Source: Candidatus Jacksonbacteria bacterium RIFOXYB2_FULL_44_15 | GTDB lineage: Bacteria > Patescibacteriota > Patescibacteriia > UBA9629 | DNA length: 37,701 bases | Direction: 5' to 3' | NCBI GenBank assembly: GCA_001818235.1 | Contig: MHJY01000030.1 | Coordinates: 1-37,701 of the forward strand | Part shown: positions 1 to 37,650 of the stretch, in pieces | Numbering within the stretch: the stretch's first letter is position 1 | How the letters are laid out: the number at the start of each line of letters is the position of its first letter | Made by a program: the position numbers and the translations under genes | Notes under the pieces: model-generated | What the model was told of the DNA's origin: nothing | Databases searched by the model: none | Seen by the model: only the letters and a program-made list of their open reading frames with translations

Positions 1-2171
1 GCCTGATACGCGGTTTCCGGATCACCTAAATAATAGCGCTTACGGTCAACGGGATTGATATACCAGGCCGCACCTTTAGCCTGCACCTGCAATAATATCC
101 GGCCGTTTAACCGCTCAATCAATTTACTGTCATAAGCATACTTGCCAACGCCTGTCGGACGGTAACCGGAAGTTACTTCGGTTCGGTCATCATAACCGTC
201 GAGGTCAGTGTCTTTTTTATTGCTGTCAGTGCCAAGGATCTTTTCCAAACTATCAGCCAAACCATCACTATCGCTATCTTTCAGATTATAAATCCGCTCC
301 TGCCAGCCGATTGGAATCTTCTCCAAATCACTGGTAGTAATCCCCAAACCAAAAGCGCGCATAATATCATAAGCGGCCTGTCCATTTCGCAAATAAAATT
401 TATTCACCGATACTGGATCAACATACCAGGCTTCACCGTTTGCCTCCACCTGCAATAAAATTTTACCTTTGACTTGTATAGCAAGCACTGTATCAATCCG
501 GGTGAGAAAATTATACTCCATTGTCATCAGATCGCTTTCAAACTGGCTAACCGGCCGGCTAATTGTAACTATCTTTCGCGCGACCGCTAAAGGCGAAAGA
601 TACCGATTGCCGTCTATTGGCAGTGCATTATTGATCACCAAAAGACTCTGATTTAAAATATTATTTTGTTCATTGCTTTCACTAATTTGATGCCCGCTGT
701 CAACTTCGAAATTAACGGTCATCGTGCCGCTCCCGGTACGCAACCATTCCAAATTATGCGTCTTCTCCAGCGTCGCGCCAGCCGCGATTTGACCGGCCGA
801 AAATTGACTGGCTAACCCGGAAGTAAAACCGATGAGGCTATAATCAAAATTTGTCAGTGGTACTTTGCTGTTATTTTTCCAAGCCACGGTTATTGTTAAT
901 GGATCGCCAGACCAAACAACATTGCCCGCGCGTTTATTATTTTTGACTTCAAATTTGATTGCTGATAAATCAGGCAGATCCGCGGTAACCGTCACTTCAG
1001 CAGTCTTGGTGGTGGAGAGCGACTGGCTGTCGGTAATGGCAAGCGTTAATTGATACTTGCCTGTTTTGGTATAAATATGGGTAAACGTTTTCTCCAAACT
1101 TGCACCGATCGGCGTGACGTCGCTTTTGTCTTTAATCGTTAAGCCATCGCCCCAGTTTAAAACGTAATCTAAGTGAACGCCATCAGGATCGCTCACTATC
1201 AAACCCCAAGTCGCCAAATCGTTGACTTTAGCAATTTGCGGCGGCCAACTTTCGGTAATCACTGGCGGACTGGTTGTCGTCTTAACATTAACAAATATTA
1301 CTGCGCTATCAGAATAATTTGTAACACTATCAACGCAGTCAATTTTGAATTCCAAAGTTTTGACGTAACCAAGGTTACTGTCCCGCGCGTATGCGGTCGC
1401 GCTCCCGCTTGGTAACGTAATTTTCGTGCCCAGCTCGCTCCAAAGACCACCGGCCTCAAGCGGTACCGGACTGCCGGATACTGTGCAATTATTATCAAAA
1501 GTACTGACCCAAGATACTACCATCCGCTCATTGTAATTAACTTCTACAATTTGATTTGCGCCGTTTACTTTAAGATCTACTTTTAGTTCAGGTACCGAAA
1601 TTATCAAAACCGTCGGTTTGGTGACTTCTACTGATTGCCGCGCGCTACCTGATCCTTCAGCCATTGTCGCTTTACTAGTAGTAACTTCAAGTTTTTTAAT
1701 TTGTGGATCTAATAAAATATATTTAATTTTACCAATCGCACCATCGGCTAAAAATGAACCTTTTTTTACGGCATGAATCAAAATTTTACTGCCTGCTGGC
1801 GCAATTATTTGCTCCTCCTCACCTTCAATTAAGGCAGTAGTTTTAGTAATATCAATTTCCCAATCAGTTGTGCTCGGCAAATATTCTAATTGAACTTGCG
1901 ATTCCTTTAATTGCATATCCTGACCGAATTCATCTTTCCCGGAAAACAGCCACCAAATTTGATACAAATTGATATCACGACTCCCGATGTTATTCACTGC
2001 TACATTAATCTCACCGCTAGTTTGCGTTTGATTAGATATGCTTTGCGTTAAGCTAATCGGGCTATCAGCCGCGCGACTGGATTTAATTTGCAGGAACACA
2101 AAAAGACCTAAACCTATAATCAAAAAAAGGCTTAAAATAATAACTTTAAACTTATGGGCAGTTTTGGGCAT
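1..2171 (-). CDS. Secreted multidomain surface protein (PKD, CARDB, CPR repeat domain), incomplete at window edge
   Basis: This open frame is absent from the ORF track because it runs off the left edge. It starts at ATG 2171 and stays open for 723 codons. I read an N-terminal membrane/signal segment (FKVIILSLFLIIGLGLFVF), then a domain resembling cohesin or an Ig fold. A PKD-like domain follows (NWGDG, then FTHIYTKTGKYQLTLAITD), then a CARDB-like domain (ending ISESNEQNNI). Two copies of a short domain come next (ILLQVEANGEAWYVDPV and ILLQVQAKGAAWYINPVDR) separated by Asp-rich calcium-binding-type repeats (DSDSDGLADSLEK, DTDLDGYDD). The short domain is very common in Patescibacteria surface proteins; its function is unknown to me. 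The protein is probably an exported cell-surface or S-layer-associated adhesin. The C-terminus and any anchor lie outside the window. Confidence 0.8.
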   Translation of the reverse strand, partial: MPKTAHKFKVIILSLFLIIGLGLFVFLQIKSSRAADSPISLTQSISNQTQTSGEINVAVNNIGSRDINLYQIWWLFSGKDEFGQDMQLKESQVQLEYLPSTTDWEIDITKTTALIEGEEEQIIAPAGSKILIHAVKKGSFLADGAIGKIKYILLDPQIKKLEVTTSKATMAEGSGSARQSVEVTKPTVLIISVPELKVDLKVNGANQIVEVNYNERMVVSWVSTFDNNCTVSGSPVPLEAGGLWSELGTKITLPSGSATAYARDSNLGYVKTLEFKIDCVDSVTNYSDSAVIFVNVKTTTSPPVITESWPPQIAKVNDLATWGLIVSDPDGVHLDYVLNWGDGLTIKDKSDVTPIGASLEKTFTHIYTKTGKYQLTLAITDSQSLSTTKTAEVTVTADLPDLSAIKFEVKNNKRAGNVVWSGDPLTITVAWKNNSKVPLTNFDYSLIGFTSGLASQFSAGQIAAGATLEKTHNLEWLRTGSGTMTVNFEVDSGHQISESNEQNNILNQSLLVINNALPIDGNRYLSPLAVARKIVTISRPVSQFESDLMTMEYNFLTRIDTVLAIQVKGKILLQVEANGEAWYVDPVSVNKFYLRNGQAAYDIMRAFGLGITTSDLEKIPIGWQERIYNLKDSDSDGLADSLEKILGTDSNKKDTDLDGYDDRTEVTSGYRPTGVGKYAYDSKLIERLNGRILLQVQAKGAAWYINPVDRKRYYLGDPETAYQ

Positions 2172-2213
2172 ACCCCGTAAATTGATGCCTAAAATTAAAG
2201 AAAAACTAAAATT

Positions 2214-2222
2214 ATTATATCA
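2214..2222 (-). promoter_or_regulatory. Extended -10 promoter for the surface protein gene
   Basis: On the minus strand TGATATAAT is an ideal extended -10 (TGn plus TATAAT), placing a transcription start near 2207 and a leader of about 36 nt before ATG 2171. No good -35 is visible, which fits an extended -10 promoter. Confidence 0.6.
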
Positions 2223-2257
2223 CAGCGCCAGCAAAAAACAAAACTGATTAACGCCTG

Positions 2258-2316
2258 AATTGCCATTCCGAGCGTAGCGAGGCCAGCCAGAGGCTGATCA
2301 CCCTTTGGGCGGAATC
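2258..2316. repeat. Palindromic intergenic repeat (CCGAGC family), variant with GCCAGCCAGAGGCTGATC core
   Basis: This segment reads ATTCCGAGCGTAGCGAGG, then GCCAGCCAGAGGCTGATC, a CCCTTTGGG mini-hairpin and GGAATCCC. The same core recurs at 2412-2441 and, inverted, at 10962-10989. It is one member of a dispersed hairpin family seen five or more times in this window, always outside genes. Confidence 0.75.
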
Positions 2317-2322
2317 CCTGTA

Positions 2323-2574
2323 GTTAATTTTCAATTCTCAATTTACAAATCAATATCAAATTATTTAATGACTTAATTTTCAAACTGTTTGAAAATTTGT
2401 TCATTGTTATTGCCAGCCAGAGGCTGATCGCCCTTTGGGCGAAAAATTCAATGAACCTCCGCGCAGCAAGCTGACGAGGTATAAAATGAATTACTATCAG
2501 AATGATACGGTAACCGCGCAGCAAGCTGTCGCGGAATCAGCAAGTTGAAAATTAGTAAATTGAAAATTCTTAAC
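2323..2574. repeat. Long AT-rich imperfect palindrome with nested hairpins
   Basis: The left arm (GTTAATTTTCAATTCTCAAT) is matched in inverted orientation by the right arm (GTAAATTGAAAATTCTTAAC). Between the arms lie a TTTTCAAACTGTTTGAAAA hairpin, a second copy of the GCCAGCCAGAGGCTGATC core, and two related small hairpins at 2456-2479 and 2514-2534 that share GCGCAGCAAGCTG. I see no convincing gene in 2172-2748; the 66-aa minus ORF here runs through the repeats. Confidence 0.65.
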
Positions 2575-2725
2575 GAGGGATCCCTCCACTCCTCCTCGCC
2601 GCTGCTCGGCGTCGGTCGGGATGACAACGCTTACTAACTACTTGTGTCAGTCAAAATTATGCTTTTGCTTGTCATTCCGACCGAAGGTCCGATAGCAATC
2701 GGACCGTAGTGGAGGAATCCCTCTC
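2573..2725. repeat. Inverted pair of CCGAGC-family repeats
   Basis: The left arm reads GAGGGATCCCTCCACTCC ... GTCGGGATGACAAC and the right arm reads TTGTCATTCCGACC ... AGTGGAGGAATCCCTCTC. The arms are complementary and would fold into one large hairpin with about 40 nt of unique sequence at its tip. The right arm contains its own GGTCCGATAGCAATCGGACC palindrome. The element sits just beyond the rsmA stop, so it could protect the 3' end of that transcript. Confidence 0.7.
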
Positions 2726-2748
2726 TTTATGATCCAAAGCGATCCCTT

Positions 2749-3606
2749 TTAGTTTTTGTTTTTAATGTTCATCTCTTTCCACTCCCCGGCCAGCCTCAGC
2801 CAATCCTCCATCGACAATTGCTCGGCCCGCGCCAAAACAGGCAATTTTGCCGCCAAAAAAATTTCCTCCCACTGCGCCCGATTCTTTAGCAAATAATTAG
2901 TGAGGTTGCTGATCAACAGTTTCCGTTTGCTAGCAAAACCGGCTTTAAGCAAAGCGAAAAAACATTCCTCCACCGCTTGCCGCCCGGCGTCCGGCTTAAC
3001 GACAATTTTAAGCAAGGCAGAATCAACATTTGGCATCGGCCAAAAAAAACTTCGCGAAATAGTGGTGATTATTTTCGGCTCGCCGTAAAACTGCACCGCT
3101 AAAGATAATTTGGAAGTCTGCGGCGGCTGGGCGCAAATCCGCTGGGCAACTTCTTGCTGAATGATTACCACCAAACTTTCCGGCGGGTTACTTTCTGACA
3201 AAAACAGCCGCAAAATCCGCGGGGCAATGTAATAAGGCAAATTTCCAACTACCTTGTAAGTTTTAAAATTTAAAATTTGAAATTTAAAATTGAGCACGTC
3301 CTCTCCCCTAACCTCAACATTATTTGATTGTTCCGTTACTTCCTCCAAAATCGGCAGCAAGCGCGCGTCAATTTCATAAGCCACGACTGTTTTTGCCTTA
3401 GACGCCAAGGGCACTGTCAGCACACCCAAACCAGCCCCGACTTCTATCACCAAATCATTTTTTGATAAGTCAGCGGCAGAAACAACTTTGTTTACAATAT
3501 TTCGATCAATCAAAAAATTCTGCCCCAGTGATTTCTTGGGATTGATGTTCGCGGAAAGTAAAATGTTTTTTAATTTTGCTGGAGAGAGAAGGTCGGAGTG
3601 AATCAT
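2749..3606 (-). CDS. rsmA: 16S rRNA (adenine1518-N6/adenine1519-N6)-dimethyltransferase
   Basis: RsmA/KsgA dimethylates two adjacent adenines in helix 45 of 16S rRNA during small-subunit maturation, using SAM. Visible motifs are KKSLGQNFL (residues 25-32), the SAM-binding EVGAGLG (55-61) and the catalytic NLPYY (122-126). The track starts at TTG 3627; I prefer ATG 3606, which gives 285 aa and a normal N-terminus, with GGA six bases upstream. A TATAAT lies at 3643-3648. Residues about 105-115 (LNFKFQILNFK) look like an in-frame remnant of the AT-rich intergenic repeat, lengthening the loop before NLPYY. The C-terminal helical domain is present. The gene follows pcrA in the same orientation. 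Confidence 0.95.
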   Translation of the reverse strand: MIHSDLLSPAKLKNILLSANINPKKSLGQNFLIDRNIVNKVVSAADLSKNDLVIEVGAGLGVLTVPLASKAKTVVAYEIDARLLPILEEVTEQSNNVEVRGEDVLNFKFQILNFKTYKVVGNLPYYIAPRILRLFLSESNPPESLVVIIQQEVAQRICAQPPQTSKLSLAVQFYGEPKIITTISRSFFWPMPNVDSALLKIVVKPDAGRQAVEECFFALLKAGFASKRKLLISNLTNYLLKNRAQWEEIFLAAKLPVLARAEQLSMEDWLRLAGEWKEMNIKNKN

Positions 3607-3642
3607 AAAATTCCAATTTAATATCAAATTAATATCAAAAAA

Positions 3643-3763
3643 ATTATACTAATTATTCTAATTAACCTAATTGTTCTAAATAAATCCCAATGTCCAATGA
3701 CTAAATTTATGAATTGGGTTTTGGTGCTTATTTAGAATAATTAGAACAATTAGAATAATTTAA
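3643..3763. repeat. Long AT-rich palindrome between pcrA and rsmA
   Basis: The left arm AATTATTCTAATTAACCTAA and the right arm TTAGAACAATTAGAATAATT are near-complementary over about 33 bp. The loop contains a second inner pairing (AATCCCAAT with AATTGGGTT). The whole intergenic gap is therefore one hairpin. It also carries the TATAAT that probably serves rsmA, so the structure may separate the pcrA and rsmA transcripts. Confidence 0.65.
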
Positions 3764-3772
3764 CAACTTTTT

Positions 3773-5947
3773 TTACTCCCTCACCCATTCAACTATCTTC
3801 CTATCCACCCCCGCAACAAATTCCGACACCTGCGGATAAATAAGCGCGCCGTACAATTGGCGCTGGCGCGTATGCGTTAAATATAACCGTTCGCGGGCGC
3901 GCGTAATGCCCACATAACACAACCGCCGCTCTTCCTCCAGTTCTGCCGGGTTAAGCGTGGCCGACGCGTGCGGCAGAAGCCCCTGTTCCAGGCCGACCAT
4001 AAAAACCGTCTCAAATTCCAAACCTTTGGCGCTGTGGATCGTCATTAAAGTTAGTGCTTGGCTTTGATCGTTTAAGCTATCAATATCAGAAACGAGCGCG
4101 ATCTCTTCCAAAAAACCGCGCAAGGCCTCTAGCCCACGTCCGGTGCTGTAACGTACAGCCGCGCTTGCCAGTTCGCGGATATTTTCTTCCCGTTCCGTAA
4201 AATTTAACTGAGTGGCTTTAAGGTGCTCAAAATAACCACTGGACTCGGCGATTTGAATAATCATTTCGGCAACCGATAATTTGTCGAGTTCCCCGGATAG
4301 CGCCGACCAAAGCGTAAAAAAAGGCAATACTTTTTTAGCCGGACCAGCCATCCCCCGGGCGACTTCACTGCCAAAAAATTGTTTTGCCCCAGCGAAATCA
4401 AAATTATTGTTCCGCAACCAAGTGGCTAAATATTGCCAAGTTTTCGGTCCGATCCCGCGCGGCGGAATGTTGATAACGCGTTCCAGACTCACTAAGTCGC
4501 GATGATTCGCCAATAGTCGCAAATACGCCAAGAGGTCTTTAATCTCCTGCCGCTCGTAAAATCGCACCCCGCCGATAATTTTGTACGGCACGTTCCAGTC
4601 CAGCAAAACCTCTTCCAAAGCCCTTGATTGAGCGTTAGTGCGATAAAGAACAACAAAAGTATTCAGGTTGATTCCGTCCAACCGCACTGGCCGAGAACGG
4701 CTGATGTTTAATCGGGCGCTTGGCCGCTCGCCGCGACGCGACGCCATCACGCGATCTAGAATTCCACCCCTGCCCGGCTTTTGACATTGCTCTTGATCCT
4801 CATACTCATATTCTAATTCCTGGGTCTGACGTTTTTCTGATTCTTCTGATTCCGTCGATTTGGACTTGCCGGTCAACTTGGCAATTTGGCTAATCACAAA
4901 TTCAGCCTCAGCCCGCTCATCTTCCACTTCCACGATTTGCGGCAGAACTCCGCGCGGATTTTCCGTCCATAATACTTTTTTGTTTTGATGCCTGTTTTTG
5001 GCGATCACGGCGTTGGCCAAATTTAAAATGCTTTGCGTGGATCGATAATTTTGTTCAAGCAAAAACGTCTTGGTCTTGGGATAATCACGAGTAAAATTTA
5101 AAATATTATCCAAATTCGCTCCTCGGAAACCGTAAATGCTTTGATAATCATCACCCACGACAAACAAGTTCTGGTGCCCGGCCGCCAAAAGCCGGCAGAA
5201 TTCGTATTGGGCATAATTCGTGTCCTGATATTCATCAACCAAAATATATTGCCAGCGATTTTGATACTTTTGCCGGATCAATGGGTAATCACGCAAAAGC
5301 AAAACCGTTTTGAATAATAAATCGCTAAAATCCAGGGCATTGACTTCGGCTAAATAATTTTGATAATGGCCGTAAATTTGCTGGACTATTTTTAAAACCG
5401 GCGGCGGCAAATCATCTTTAAACTCATCTAAAAATTGTTCCGGCTCGACTAATCGCATTTTCGCTTGATCCAATAATTTGGCGATAATACGCGGATTAAA
5501 ATCCGTCAGACTGATTTGAGCCTCGCTTAAAACTTGCTTTATGGCTTTACGAACATCGGCGCCATCAAAAATCGTATAATTACCATTCCAAAGAGCACCC
5601 AGCGCGCCAATGTCCTCCCGCAGAATCCGCGCGCAAACCGAATGAAAAGTACCGATTGCCGGTGTAGCTAGGGCAAACCCGGTAAATCGTTTAGCAACGG
5701 CCGGCAAATTTAATAGTTCCCGCGCCCGCAGAGCCATCTCACCGGCCGCTTTATTGGTAAAAGTAACCGCTAAAATTTGCTCTGGCCGCACGCCCTCTTG
5801 GGCAATTAAATAGGCCAGACGATGAGTGAGCACGCGCGTTTTTCCACTGCCAGCGCCGGCCAATACTAAAACCGGCCCTTTGACTTGGGCGACGGCTGAC
5901 TGCTGTGCTGTATTCAATTGCTTAAGAATATCTTTCACGATTGACAA
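3773..5947 (-). CDS. pcrA: UvrD/PcrA-family ATP-dependent DNA helicase with an in-frame insertion
   Basis: Superfamily 1A 3'-5' DNA helicase acting in repair and replication-fork maintenance. All motifs are visible: Walker A GAGSGKT (31-37), AVTFTNKAAGEM, DEYQDTN (about 233-239), VVGDDYQSIYGFRGA (about 263), LEQNYRSTQSIL, LMTIHSAKGLEFE and YVGITRARERLYLT. Between the region after motif IV and NLNTFVVLYRTNAQSR there are about 70 residues where homologues usually have 10-15. The insert has an acidic half (EYEYEDQEQ) and a basic half (RGERPSARLNISRSRPVRL). The protein ends about 35 residues after motif VI, so the C-terminal Tudor-like RNA-polymerase-binding domain of typical PcrA is missing. The start is uncertain: TTG 5947 (track) or GTG 5938. 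It is divergent from the S1-domain gene. Confidence 0.93.
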   Translation of the reverse strand: MSIVKDILKQLNTAQQSAVAQVKGPVLVLAGAGSGKTRVLTHRLAYLIAQEGVRPEQILAVTFTNKAAGEMALRARELLNLPAVAKRFTGFALATPAIGTFHSVCARILREDIGALGALWNGNYTIFDGADVRKAIKQVLSEAQISLTDFNPRIIAKLLDQAKMRLVEPEQFLDEFKDDLPPPVLKIVQQIYGHYQNYLAEVNALDFSDLLFKTVLLLRDYPLIRQKYQNRWQYILVDEYQDTNYAQYEFCRLLAAGHQNLFVVGDDYQSIYGFRGANLDNILNFTRDYPKTKTFLLEQNYRSTQSILNLANAVIAKNRHQNKKVLWTENPRGVLPQIVEVEDERAEAEFVISQIAKLTGKSKSTESEESEKRQTQELEYEYEDQEQCQKPGRGGILDRVMASRRGERPSARLNISRSRPVRLDGINLNTFVVLYRTNAQSRALEEVLLDWNVPYKIIGGVRFYERQEIKDLLAYLRLLANHRDLVSLERVINIPPRGIGPKTWQYLATWLRNNNFDFAGAKQFFGSEVARGMAGPAKKVLPFFTLWSALSGELDKLSVAEMIIQIAESSGYFEHLKATQLNFTEREENIRELASAAVRYSTGRGLEALRGFLEEIALVSDIDSLNDQSQALTLMTIHSAKGLEFETVFMVGLEQGLLPHASATLNPAELEEERRLCYVGITRARERLYLTHTRQRQLYGALIYPQVSEFVAGVDRKIVEWVRE

Positions 5948-33978: not shown

Positions 33979-34527
33979 TTATTTCTGACAAATTAGGGCA
34001 ACCAACCTCCTTGGATCCGGATCAAAAATGACTTTGGCGCCGGTTTTTTTGTCCGCGTCTTCCAACAAAATTTTGATCGCCCGCTCAGTAATGCCGCCAG
34101 TGCCCGCTAGAACACCAATAGTTTTTCCGAGATCGTAAGCGATGGTAAATTCGTTCATCGTGCCAATGCGGCCGCTGATTATAATAGCCGCGTCAACACA
34201 GGCGACGGATGATACATTGCGATATTTTTTACAAACTGCCTCATTAGCCGCGTACTCGTAATCTTGGGGGACGAAAATAAAATCGGAAAAACCGAGTGTC
34301 GGGTAATTCGCTTGTTTGTGCCCGGCCAAATCAATTGCCGACGAAAAAGCAACGCATCGACCATTTTTTTCGCTGGCTCCTAATACCGCTTCATACGGTA
34401 AACCTGGGCAACCTCCAGTCACTAAAATCGCCTTGTTTTCCGCAATAGTTCGGCCAATTAATCGCGCCTTTTCTTTGATCTCATCGTCCATCACCTCGAT
34501 GGCCGAACCATAAACTCCGATTTTCAT
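33979..34527 (-). CDS. SLOG/LOG-family (TIGR00725-like) nucleotide-binding protein
   Basis: About 182 aa from ATG 34527 (MKIGVYGSA), which gives the normal Rossmann start; the track's first ten residues are probably untranslated. Visible are KIGVYGSAIEV, ILVTGGCPGLPYEAVLGA, and SGRIGTMNEFTIAYDLGKTI, which corresponds to the PGGxGTxxE loop of lysine-decarboxylase-like/LOG proteins with Ser-Gly-Arg in place of Pro-Gly-Gly. Relatives bind or cleave nucleotides (cytokinin riboside monophosphate, or NAD-derived signals in defence systems). No effector domain is fused. Substrate unknown. Confidence 0.75.
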   Translation of the reverse strand: MKIGVYGSAIEVMDDEIKEKARLIGRTIAENKAILVTGGCPGLPYEAVLGASEKNGRCVAFSSAIDLAGHKQANYPTLGFSDFIFVPQDYEYAANEAVCKKYRNVSSVACVDAAIIISGRIGTMNEFTIAYDLGKTIGVLAGTGGITERAIKILLEDADKKTGAKVIFDPDPRRLVALICQK

Positions 34528-34600
34528 ATTTATGTCGTCGCTCTTTATTATCTGCATAGGCTAATATCTAATTTTGCCGTCTCTAGCTACTAATTTCAAC

Positions 34601-34676: not shown

Positions 34677-35036
34677 TTAATTACACTTGCTCGCGCAATC
34701 AAATAATTTGATATTATCAGCTTTGTTGGCGTCGACGCATATTTGGATGCATAATTTACACTGGGTGAATTGTGAATTCTCTATTTGTCGGCATTGGCCA
34801 TTTTGAACCCCGCATTTTGCGTATTGCAAGCACCTGTCGCCAACCATGTAGCTTTCTGTACAAACCTGCGGCGGATTGGGACCGCATTTAATATCCAATC
34901 CGTGACAATTTTCCAGTGAACAGACGCCTGGGGAATCTAGTGTGGAATTTTTAGCCCCTTTAAAATACCAATAACCAACACCTAAGCCAAATAGGGCAAT
35001 CAGCGTTATTATTATAATTAGTGGTTTGTTTTGCAT
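34677..35036 (-). CDS. Membrane-anchored Cys-rich small protein
   Basis: 119 aa. An N-terminal signal anchor (PLIIIITLIALFGLGVGYWY) is followed by a short linker and about 80 residues with 12 Cys (CSLENCHGLDIKCGPNPPQVC, CLQYAKCGVQNGQC, CKLCIQICVD, CASKC). It would be displayed outside the membrane as a disulfide-stabilised knot. The Cys spacing differs from that of the pilin ectodomains, so it is probably an independent family. Function unknown; gene borders are clean. Confidence 0.7.
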   Translation of the reverse strand: MQNKPLIIIITLIALFGLGVGYWYFKGAKNSTLDSPGVCSLENCHGLDIKCGPNPPQVCTESYMVGDRCLQYAKCGVQNGQCRQIENSQFTQCKLCIQICVDANKADNIKLFDCASKCN

Positions 35037-35073: not shown

Positions 35074-35229
35074 CTATTTTTGTTTCAATAAATTACCTAT
35101 TCTCTCAAAACAATCAAGTAAATCTTTATATGTATTTTTGCCGCCAAGAAAATCCCAAAACTCGTCTGCTACTTTAAGCTCATTGTCTAAGTCAAGCATC
35201 CCACGCATAGTCCAACGATCATAAAACAT
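35074..35229 (-). CDS. 51-aa unknown protein at the end of the restriction-modification operon
   Basis: Too short for the ORF track. ATG 35229 overlaps the TAA of the 70-aa gene (TAATG), and the frame runs to TAG at 35074. The protein starts MFYDRWTMRGMLDLDNELK and continues as an acidic helical sequence (VADEFWDFLGGKNTYKDLLD). Translational coupling, balanced residue composition and absence of repeats support a real gene. It has no recognised domain. Confidence 0.6.
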   Translation of the reverse strand: MFYDRWTMRGMLDLDNELKVADEFWDFLGGKNTYKDLLDCFERIGNLLKQK

Positions 35230-35441
35230 TAGTTATGATGCTTGGCTGTTTTTTCAACAGCCGCCTCAATCGCAGATCTTAAAGTAATATCCATTACACA
35301 TGACAACCCCGACTCAACACATTTTTCTGCAATATATAATTCATCATCAGTCAATTTTCTACCAATTCGTTTGATAGCGTCATTTTGTAAATCACCAATG
35401 GTTATTGGATAGATTACTTTCGTGTTTTGTTTGATTTCCAT
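35229..35441 (-). CDS. 70-aa unknown protein in the restriction-modification operon
   Basis: 70 aa, starting 4 nt after the endonuclease stop. It contains a short beta start (NTKVIYPITIGDLQNDAIKR) and helices (RKLTDDELYIAEKCVESGLS and LRSAIEAAVEKTAKHH). Soluble and acidic. It is coupled to the 51-aa gene downstream. The pair might be an accessory element of the system or a separate two-gene module; I do not recognise either family. Confidence 0.6.
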   Translation of the reverse strand: MEIKQNTKVIYPITIGDLQNDAIKRIGRKLTDDELYIAEKCVESGLSCVMDITLRSAIEAAVEKTAKHHN

Positions 35442-35445
35442 ATTT

Positions 35446-36192
35446 TTATTTTTTGATTATTTTTTCAAAACCAGAATTATACACAACTAATTTTTCCCAA
35501 TTGATTTTTCCATCATCACAAAACTTTTGCGAAAACTCCAACGTGAGTTTATTTATTATTTGGGCGTAATTTTCAACAAATTCTTCGTTTTTCTCCTTTG
35601 CTTTGTAACCAATCGGCTCGACGATGTCTATATATAATTTTTCATTTCCAGAAATAAATTCCCAAAATCGTTGTCCGCACAATTTCAAATAACCGCCCTT
35701 ATCCGGCTTATTGTCTTTGCCGAAACAACAGCCGTTGACTGCTAAAACTTTTTTGCCGGTTCGCGAGCTTAGTATTTTTTTTGCTTTCTCAAAATTAGTT
35801 CGCAGTTGTTTGATTTGGCTTGAATTACCCCAATTCCAACCGGCTTTAATTTCCACAACATAAATTGTGTTGTCTTTTTCAAATTCTAAATCAATGCCGG
35901 TTAATTCAGATTTTTTTGCGCCATAACTTTTATCACATATGAAAATTGCCAAGCCCTCAATAAAATCTCCAAAAAAAGTTTCTTCTTGCGATTGCAAAAA
36001 AGCGTCAAGAAATCCCTTAATTAAATCTTGTGCGGTAAGCACGTTTTTAGCCTTAAAAAGATAGGGATTTTTCTGTTTCAGAATTTTCATCAGCTTAATC
36101 TTGTTACGCATGCAATCTAATCTTTTTTGATGAAAAACAGAAATGTATTTTTCTACATATTCAAAAACTTGTTTTAAATTGATTTTTTTCAT
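35446..36192 (-). CDS. Type II restriction endonuclease (Eco47II/PmeII-like)
   Basis: 248 aa. The pattern KNPYLFKAKNVLTAQDLIKG, then SQEETFFGDFIEGLAIFI and GIDLEFEKDNTIYVVEIKAG with WNWGNSSQIKQL, matches the type II endonucleases related to Eco47II/PmeII as I remember them. The PD-(D/E)xK core is D101, E114 and K116. It cleaves unmethylated foreign DNA; I cannot derive the recognition site with certainty. The start overlaps the methyltransferase stop (ATGA), so the two are made together. Confidence 0.82.
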   Translation of the reverse strand: MKKINLKQVFEYVEKYISVFHQKRLDCMRNKIKLMKILKQKNPYLFKAKNVLTAQDLIKGFLDAFLQSQEETFFGDFIEGLAIFICDKSYGAKKSELTGIDLEFEKDNTIYVVEIKAGWNWGNSSQIKQLRTNFEKAKKILSSRTGKKVLAVNGCCFGKDNKPDKGGYLKLCGQRFWEFISGNEKLYIDIVEPIGYKAKEKNEEFVENYAQIINKLTLEFSQKFCDDGKINWEKLVVYNSGFEKIIKK

Positions 36193-37085
36193 ACCATTAT
36201 CTTTATCTTATTAATTTTATTAGTAAATAAGGATGGCGTATATTCATTTTTTTTTATTTTTTCTTTTGCTAAATTCACATATTCAGGTATTATCTCGATA
36301 CCTACAGAATTGCGTCCCATTTTTTGCGCTACCTCCGATGTCGTGCCGGAGCCTAAAAAGGGATCTAAAACCCAGTCATATTTATTCGTAAATAATTTAA
36401 TAAACCACTCTGGCAATTCTTTTGGAAAAGGCGCACTGTGATTTTTATTATTACAAACAGTAGCAAATTGCACGACATTAGTTGGATATACCTTGCTCCT
36501 ACCAAGCCAATTAGATACATTTTTCCCAAACCCGCTACCACTTTTTGAATTATCACGAATTTTGTCAGTTTGGCTCAAATTCTTCAATCTACCATTCGCC
36601 CAGTCGCCAATTTGCACCATTACATTTTCCTGGTACATCTTAAAATCACGTGTTTTATTGAATTGTAAAAGCCTTTCCCACGCATCGCGAAAACGATTAG
36701 GCCATTTACCCGGATAACAATTTTTTTTATGCCAAATAAATTCTTCAGTCCAAATCCAGCCCTGTTTCCGTAAAGCTAAAATAAGCTCTAGTACATAAGC
36801 ATTGCGTTCACCTTTATCAGCCTTTTCTTTGATATTTAAAATAAATGTCCCCGTTGGTTTAAGAACCCGTAATAATTCGGCGCTTATTGGCAAAAACCAC
36901 TCGACATATTTTTCTGGAGATATCCCGCCATAAGTATTCTTTCTTCTATCTGCATATGGAGGCGAAGTCACAACTAGATCAATAAAATCGTCTTCTATTT
37001 CTTTAAGTATATCTTTTGAATCGCCAAGTAGTATTTTTGTTATTATATCGTACATAATTATATTTTTACCAAAGCTTATGTTCAT
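36189..37085 (-). CDS. Type II DNA methyltransferase (N4-cytosine/N6-adenine, beta class)
   Basis: 298 aa. The catalytic motif TSPPYADRR (40-48) comes first and the SAM-binding motif DPFLGSGTT (about 240) last, giving the beta-class order; TSPPY suggests N4-cytosine or N6-adenine methylation. It protects host DNA from the adjacent endonuclease. I keep ATG 37085 because it overlaps the stop of an upstream mini-ORF (TAATG); ATG 37055 is the alternative. The central region (KDFKMYQENVMVQIGDWANG-like) should hold target recognition. Confidence 0.88.
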   Translation of the reverse strand: MNISFGKNIIMYDIITKILLGDSKDILKEIEDDFIDLVVTSPPYADRRKNTYGGISPEKYVEWFLPISAELLRVLKPTGTFILNIKEKADKGERNAYVLELILALRKQGWIWTEEFIWHKKNCYPGKWPNRFRDAWERLLQFNKTRDFKMYQENVMVQIGDWANGRLKNLSQTDKIRDNSKSGSGFGKNVSNWLGRSKVYPTNVVQFATVCNNKNHSAPFPKELPEWFIKLFTNKYDWVLDPFLGSGTTSEVAQKMGRNSVGIEIIPEYVNLAKEKIKKNEYTPSLFTNKINKIKIMV

Positions 37086-37219
37086 TAATAAAATACTGTT
37101 CGAACTTTACCATATTGGACAAGGTAAGAAATATTGGACTCATTAATTTCGCGCTTCAGAAAATCACTTGCCCAAACGCTCGCTTCTTTTATTGTTAGCT
37201 GTTGTTTTGTTTGTTGCAT
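37085..37219 (-). CDS. 44-aa HTH-like mini-ORF coupled to the methyltransferase
   Basis: Not in the ORF track. ATG 37219 to TAA 37085. The peptide contains LTIKEASVWASDFLKREIN then SNISYLVQYGKVR, the excisionase/MerR-like helix-turn-helix that some type II methyltransferases carry at their N-terminus. Here it ends right after this motif and the methyltransferase ATG overlaps the stop. It could be a free DNA-binding regulator (C-protein-like role) or the relic of a split fusion. Confidence 0.65.
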   Translation of the reverse strand: MQQTKQQLTIKEASVWASDFLKREINESNISYLVQYGKVRTVFY

Positions 37220-37357: not shown

Positions 37358-37650
37358 TCAAAAAATTACAGTGACTTTCTCGTAAAGCATCGGCAAATAA
37401 TCCTGCCTCATTCTGAATTTCGTGCCATGATTATGACCTGTTCGCGCGTCAAAGTCAACAAGGATCTTTCCCTCTTCAAGTGCTTTCAAAAATCTCTCAA
37501 AACTGAATTTCTGTAACATCATTACTTTTATGTAGTGGTAAAATTCTTTTTTCCGTCTAATCTCTACTTCCGCTTGCACATAAAAAGTATTAAGCAGTTT
37601 TGTTCCGGCCTTATAGACATCACATTTCAAAAAGCTATTAAGATTTAGCG
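37358..37650 (-). pseudogene. C-terminal remnant of a MvaI/BcnI-like restriction endonuclease
   Basis: The frame is open from about 37650 (after a TAG) to 37358 and has no credible start; the track uses TTG 37630. The protein part KEFYHYIKVMMLQKFSFERF, then GKILVDFDARTGHNHGTKFR and MRQDYLPMLY, resembles the C-terminal section of MvaI/BcnI-type endonucleases (KAYML..., then PHDHG...R). The N-terminal catalytic part is missing, so it is probably an inactive fragment. It lies directly upstream of the intact restriction-modification operon. Confidence 0.5.

What the first reader, a model, noticed from the sequence alone, without database searches (positions are those of the whole stretch)
35074..35441. 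Two tiny coupled genes following the restriction endonuclease
A 70-aa and a 51-aa gene follow the endonuclease with 4-nt and TAATG spacing. The second is below the usual ORF cutoff and easily missed. Tight coupling suggests a functional pair, for example an accessory regulator or a small toxin-antitoxin type module.
Basis: seen in the sequence. Interest (0 to 1): 0.5.

Follow-up and report, generated by a model that had tools for sequence, protein, structure and literature searches.

The report
RM cassette inside dead restriction operon
The 70-residue gene is a real, conserved but unnamed small gene that travels with several unrelated restriction-modification systems, while the 51-residue 'gene' is the tail end of an older, displaced restriction enzyme (TdeIII family), so the two are the edge of a takeover scar rather than a toxin-antitoxin pair.

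Summary
The ORFs and spacing are as described, but they are not a functional pair. The 51-aa ORF is the C-terminal ~43 residues of a TdeIII-family restriction endonuclease (Pfam PF09520 positions 200-242, E 6e-18). It lacks all catalytic residues and has a damaged 3' end. A matching 40-aa scar lies upstream of the methyltransferase: the N-terminus of the ~525-aa HTH-methyltransferase that precedes intact TdeIII in every operon whose upstream gene I mapped. So a complete [methyltransferase - EcoO109I-type endonuclease - 70-aa gene] cassette sits inside the remains of a TdeIII RM operon. The 70-aa gene is real: 12 rare homologues, dN/dS 0.04-0.2, no match to any library. At least 9 homologues follow type II endonuclease genes of at least four families, and 8 lie directly against TdeIII remnants. 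Those remnants are polyphyletic among intact TdeIII genes (one clade rejected, p-AU 4e-5), so TdeIII operons were invaded at least four times. The tight 'coupling' is the joint of that takeover. What the 70-aa protein does is unknown. My best guess is an RM accessory that restrains a restriction enzyme during establishment or takeover (about 30%).

The parts
37358..37630 (-). C-terminal relic of an MvaI/BcnI-family restriction endonuclease (older layer of the same locus)
   Evidence: PF15515 positions 144-227, E 2e-20; stops in all frames upstream
37085..37219 (-). Left scar: N-terminal 40 aa of the ~525-aa HTH-methyltransferase of a TdeIII RM operon, with its start codon
   Evidence: 82-85% identical to the N-terminus of intact HTH-methyltransferases L048/L086; DNA alignment; only copy in the genome
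36189..37085 (-). Cassette gene 1: N4/N6 DNA methyltransferase (likely true start at 37055)
   Evidence: PF01555 E 6e-45; relatives align from residue 8 on and start near residue 11
35446..36192 (-). Cassette gene 2: EcoO109I/PmeII-type restriction endonuclease, 248 aa
   Evidence: PF14511 E 6e-78; 79-85% identity to L036, L037, G120
35229..35441 (-). Cassette gene 3: 70-aa conserved RM-linked small protein, no known family; AF2 model of three helices, low to moderate confidence
   Evidence: 12-member alignment A3; dN/dS; model pLDDT 70; no family hits
35241..35252 (-). Weak probable fossil joint: codons KTAK at the 3' end of the 70-aa gene, at the place where relatives carry the TdeIII motif K-T-A/V-K-P-N (usually out of frame)
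35074..35229 (-). Right scar: 51-aa ORF, C-terminal relic of a TdeIII-family endonuclease (homologous part about 35095-35223)
   Evidence: PF09520 200-242, E 6e-18; 93% identical to intact TdeIII of G274 over 43 aa; 20-nt deletion at its 3' end

Best explanation
The region is a nested scar. An older RM operon (HTH-methyltransferase followed by TdeIII endonuclease) was taken over by a compact three-gene cassette (methyltransferase, EcoO109I-type endonuclease, 70-aa gene). The cassette replaced the middle of the operon and left only the first ~40 codons of the old methyltransferase and the last ~43 codons of TdeIII (shown by homology). The cassette genes overlap or nearly abut and start within a few bases of the scar, so the cassette probably uses the old operon's promoter (inferred). 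The 51-aa ORF is therefore inactive debris, and its TAATG 'coupling' is the joint. The 70-aa gene is a real RM accessory under purifying selection (shown), used with several unrelated endonucleases (shown). It most likely restrains an endonuclease, its own or the one being displaced, while the RM system establishes itself (inferred, about 30%; the confidence below is for the relic-and-takeover reading, not for this last step).
For: 51-aa ORF = PF09520 200-242, E 6e-18. TdeIII residues D137 and K153 (invariant) with D/E at 151 form a PD-(D/E)XK-like centre. The AF2 model (pLDDT 87) puts them in core strands, and its best PDB match is EcoO109I 1WTD (E 6e-6); the relic begins at about residue 201. 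In all eight intact TdeIII operons mapped, TdeIII directly follows a ~525-aa HTH-methyltransferase; the window's 44-aa ORF is that protein's N-terminus (82%). No other copy of either in the genome. Same nesting in L036; L037, G029 and G013 have a left scar plus TdeIII sequence; G298 and L040 show the right side. Fossil motif KT[AV]KPN: 4 hits in 162,644 six-frame codons, all at the TdeIII position, including G120 where nothing else of TdeIII is left. Relics polyphyletic, one clade rejected p-AU 3.8e-5, 4 state changes. 70-aa gene: 7 nonsynonymous against 23 synonymous changes between window and L036, dN/dS 0.04.
Against: The longer relics (L036, G298, G013, L040; 105-129 codons of the C-terminal part) are still open frames with few nonsynonymous changes, which could mean the TdeIII C-terminal part is kept by selection rather than freshly broken. 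The left scar is not visible in L040, and cannot be seen in G298 (contig start). The window relic alone is short (43 codons). The function proposed for the 70-aa protein has no direct evidence: no fold match, no expression data.
Confidence: 0.85

Rival explanations
1. The 70-aa protein and a TdeIII C-terminal-domain protein are a functional pair, for example a nuclease-dead TdeIII fragment that poisons TdeIII dimers (anti-addiction) together with an accessory protein; the window carries a shortened version.
For: C-terminal-only TdeIII ORFs of at least 105 codons beside the 70-aa gene are intact in L036, G298 and G013 (L040 has a fused internal deletion), with dN far below dS even between relics. 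In two searches of about 380 genomes each, every C-terminal-only TdeIII fragment not near a contig end had the 70-aa gene beside it.
Against: Boundaries differ between loci (residues about 20, 50, 136, 151-155, 201), the piece is gone in L037 and G120 while the 70-aa gene persists, and the window copy is cut at both ends. Relics group with different intact genes, so low dN is explained by recent breakage.
Confidence: 0.1
2. The two ORFs are a small toxin-antitoxin module.
For: Tight spacing and small sizes.
Against: 51-aa ORF is a restriction enzyme fragment; no toxin or antitoxin family hit for either; partner not retained in L037, G120, L039, G729.
Confidence: 0.02
3. The 70-aa protein is a DNA-binding controller (C-protein-like) of the RM operon.
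For: Small, predicted all-helical, RM-linked; C proteins are classic RM regulators.
Against: No HTH family match; it lies after the endonuclease gene, not before it; the G013 locus has its own separate Xre-type HTH gene upstream; one conserved protein would have to serve unrelated operons.
Confidence: 0.15
4. The 70-aa gene is a passenger whose conservation reflects a role unrelated to restriction (for example in mobile elements), carried by homologous exchange of the TdeIII flank.
For: Homologue beside a SymE-like gene in L041 and a weaker one in a prophage-like region of G558; fossil joint shared by several cassettes; related EcoO109I systems without it exist (L084, L085, plasmid L089).
Against: At least 9 of 12 homologues directly follow endonuclease genes, or sit last in RM operons, of at least four families.
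Confidence: 0.3

Closest known systems
TdeIII-family type II restriction endonucleases (PF09520)
   Same: 51-aa ORF is 93% identical over 43 residues to the C-terminus of an intact member
   Different: Only positions 200-242 of 242 remain; no catalytic residues, no cognate methyltransferase
EcoO109I/PmeII-type RM systems
   Same: Endonuclease and methyltransferase of the cassette match this kind of system
   Different: More distant relatives (L084, L085, Acinetobacter plasmid L089) are two-gene systems without the 70-aa gene
Known RM mobility: insertion into operons and substitution (Kobayashi and co-workers; PMC4615327, PMC3031569)
   Same: An RM unit inserted collinearly into an existing operon, replacing a segment
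   Different: Here the target is itself an RM operon, hit repeatedly and independently, and the joint always lies at the end of the same 70-aa gene
C proteins of RM systems (e.g. C.PvuII; PMC3850674)
   Same: Small RM-linked accessory protein
   Different: Not recognised as HTH, downstream position, shared by unrelated RM systems

Membership tests
TdeIII restriction endonuclease (51-aa ORF) | Sequence match to PF09520 above cut-off | tested here: met
   65.7 bits against cut-off 27.2, C-terminal 43 positions only
TdeIII restriction endonuclease (51-aa ORF) | Catalytic core with D137, D/E151, K153 | tested here: not met
   Relic starts at about residue 201 of intact relatives
TdeIII restriction endonuclease (51-aa ORF) | Directly downstream of the ~525-aa HTH-methyltransferase | tested here: not met
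   Only 40 N-terminal residues of it remain
EcoO109I RM system | PF14511 endonuclease next to a DNA methyltransferase | tested here: met
EcoO109I RM system | Recognition of RGGNCCY | not testable with these tools
   Specificity of this enzyme is not determined; site recalled from memory
Type II toxin-antitoxin module | Two conserved adjacent genes, both retained across genomes | tested here: not met
   Second ORF variable, truncated or absent
Type II toxin-antitoxin module | Toxin or antitoxin family match | tested here: not met
C protein (RM controller) | HTH (Xre-type) domain | tested here: not met
   No match for any of 10 members; model three helices but pLDDT only 70
C protein (RM controller) | Gene upstream of the endonuclease gene | tested here: not met
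   Always downstream where an endonuclease is present

The most novel reading that the evidence does not exclude
The 70-aa protein is a takeover factor: a small protein that neutralises or delays restriction endonucleases, including TdeIII, and so lets an incoming RM cassette displace a resident RM system without post-segregational killing. Different RM systems carrying it have repeatedly colonised TdeIII operons, with TdeIII C-terminal fragments possibly helping as dominant negatives.
Probability: 0.12. Interest if true: 0.75.

Novelty: new variant of a known kind. Interest (0 to 1): 0.4.

Why it matters
Resident RM systems are thought to resist allelic replacement because losing the methyltransferase kills the cell (reviewed in PMC3874152). 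Here at least four independent replacements of one kind of RM operon are caught in sequence, each with the same small unnamed gene at the joint. That gives a concrete candidate to test for how one RM system ousts another in streamlined Patescibacteria, and it warns that tiny ORFs beside restriction enzymes can be enzyme tails rather than new genes.

Tried and rejected
Toxin-antitoxin pair: rejected, the 51-aa ORF is an enzyme remnant. Search of the 70-aa family in phages, plasmids and viral contigs: no match, so no phage or plasmid carrier identified. Fold search of the 70-aa model: no credible match (the model itself is weak). Single shared origin of all TdeIII relics: rejected by AU test. 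Single joint position in TdeIII: not supported; L036, G029 and L040 differ. DNA-only alignment could not by itself prove the fossil joint in G120 or G298; the peptide motif count did for G120. Furuta et al. 2010 (the main earlier survey of RM mobility) was not held, so earlier reports of RM-in-RM insertion could not be checked.

Full report
What was seen. The two ORFs lie on the minus strand as described: 70 aa (35441-35229) four bases after the stop of a 248-aa endonuclease, and 51 aa (35229-35074) in a TAATG overlap. The endonuclease is EcoO109I-like (PF14511, E 6e-78), preceded by an N4/N6 methyltransferase (PF01555) with an ATGA overlap.

The 51-aa ORF is a remnant. It matches positions 200-242 of the 242-position RE_TdeIII family (E 6e-18) and is 93% identical over 43 aa to the C-terminus of an intact 260-aa TdeIII enzyme (G274). 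Its DNA aligns with intact genes and then breaks off with a 20-nt deletion. Residues that are invariant, or vary only D/E, in 14 intact relatives and look like the PD-(D/E)XK centre (D137, D/E151, K153) lie in the core of a confident AF2 model (pLDDT 87). The nearest solved structure to that model is EcoO109I itself (1WTD, E 6e-6). The relic begins at about residue 201 and contains only the C-terminal helical lobe.

The other half of the scar. In all eight intact operons whose upstream gene was mapped, TdeIII directly follows a ~525-aa HTH-methyltransferase. In the window a 44-aa ORF just upstream of the cassette methyltransferase (37219-37085) is the first 40 residues of exactly that protein (82-85% identity). 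Neither protein occurs elsewhere in the genome, which is 92% complete. So the cassette [methyltransferase - EcoO109I - 70 aa] sits between the head of one gene and the tail of the next gene of a vanished RM operon. Further upstream is the tail of a third system, an MvaI/BcnI-type endonuclease (PF15515).

The same event elsewhere. Homologues of the 70-aa protein were found in 12 genomes including this one. L036 has the same three-gene cassette between HTH-methyltransferase residues 1-116 and TdeIII from about residue 136. L037 has it after residues 1-119, followed by a short decayed TdeIII stretch. G029 and G013 have other endonuclease-like genes between the two scars. G298 has a different restriction enzyme family before the 70-aa gene and TdeIII from about residue 155; L040 (Atribacteria) has a TdeIII with an internal deletion. 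G120 has the cassette in a ribosomal-protein operon after secY, with only the motif KTAKPNID left of TdeIII. TdeIII homology always starts within about 30 bases of the 70-aa stop codon, and in several loci the last codons of the 70-aa gene are TdeIII DNA read out of frame. The motif KT[AV]KPN occurs four times in 162,644 six-frame codons of these loci, each time at the TdeIII position.

Repeated takeovers. TdeIII remnants do not form one group. L036 groups with G274, G298 with G464, L040 with G104/G400, and the window with the G161/G274 clade. Forcing the four longer ones into one clade is rejected (p-AU 3.8e-5), with four changes from intact to relic. The left scars likewise fall with different intact operons. 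This, rather than a preserved function, is the simpler account of the few nonsynonymous changes in relics: each was part of a working enzyme until recently. Exchange through the shared flanks would explain why the joint recurs; that step is inferred.

The 70-aa gene. Its core has dN/dS 0.04-0.2 across genomes with near-saturated synonymous sites. It matches no Pfam, NCBIfam, PADLOC, PHROG or PDB family and was not found in phages, plasmids or viral contigs. It accompanies endonucleases of at least four families: EcoO109I, and PADLOC REase models PDLC03572 (G298), PDLC03491 (L039) and PDLC03518 with a methyltransferase that reads as a C5 type (G729). Two homologues lie in mobile-element-like settings (L041 beside a SymE-like gene, G558 in a prophage-like region). 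EcoO109I systems without it exist (L084, L085, plasmid L089), so it is not a required part of the enzyme. The AF2 model shows three helices with low to moderate confidence (pLDDT 70) and no credible structural match.

Mechanism. Shown: takeover scar, relic, conserved 70-aa gene. Inferred: the cassette is driven by the old operon's promoter, since no promoter-sized gap precedes it; and the 70-aa protein restrains an endonuclease during establishment (about 30%). Alternatives are a DNA-binding regulator (15%) or a passenger (30%). A 51-aa partner role or a toxin-antitoxin pair is unlikely (2-10%).

Comparison with the known. RM systems are known to insert into operons and replace segments (PMC4615327, PMC3031569), and chromosomal RM systems are known to resist replacement (PMC3874152). 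What differs here is the repeated displacement of one kind of RM operon by several others, with the same small gene at the joint. I could not read the main earlier survey of RM mobility, so priority for RM-in-RM insertion is not claimed.

Noticed in passing
window 37358-37630 (-): C-terminal relic of an MvaI/BcnI-family endonuclease upstream of the TdeIII scar: a third RM layer at the same locus.
   Followed up: partly
L036 3034-3404 and L037 454-854: Left scars (HTH-methyltransferase N-terminal ~116-119 aa) are split by a frameshift in both loci, as expected of dead sequence.
   Followed up: partly
L032 (G120) 1628-5083: The three-gene RM cassette sits in a ribosomal-protein operon between secY and a YbaB-like gene followed by adk.
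   Followed up: no
L041 4727-5519: A 70-aa family member lies between a small HECVH-containing (possible metalloprotease) ORF and a SymE-like gene near DnaN- and RadC-like genes, without an RM system.
   Followed up: no
L043 3443-3655: Xre-type HTH gene (possible C protein) upstream of the G013 RM remnant.
   Followed up: no
window 34677-35036 (-): 119-aa ORF with an N-terminal hydrophobic segment and many cysteines directly downstream of the relic; no family match.
   Followed up: no
window 33979-34557 (-): SLOG cluster4 (LDcluster4) family protein close to the RM locus.
   Followed up: no
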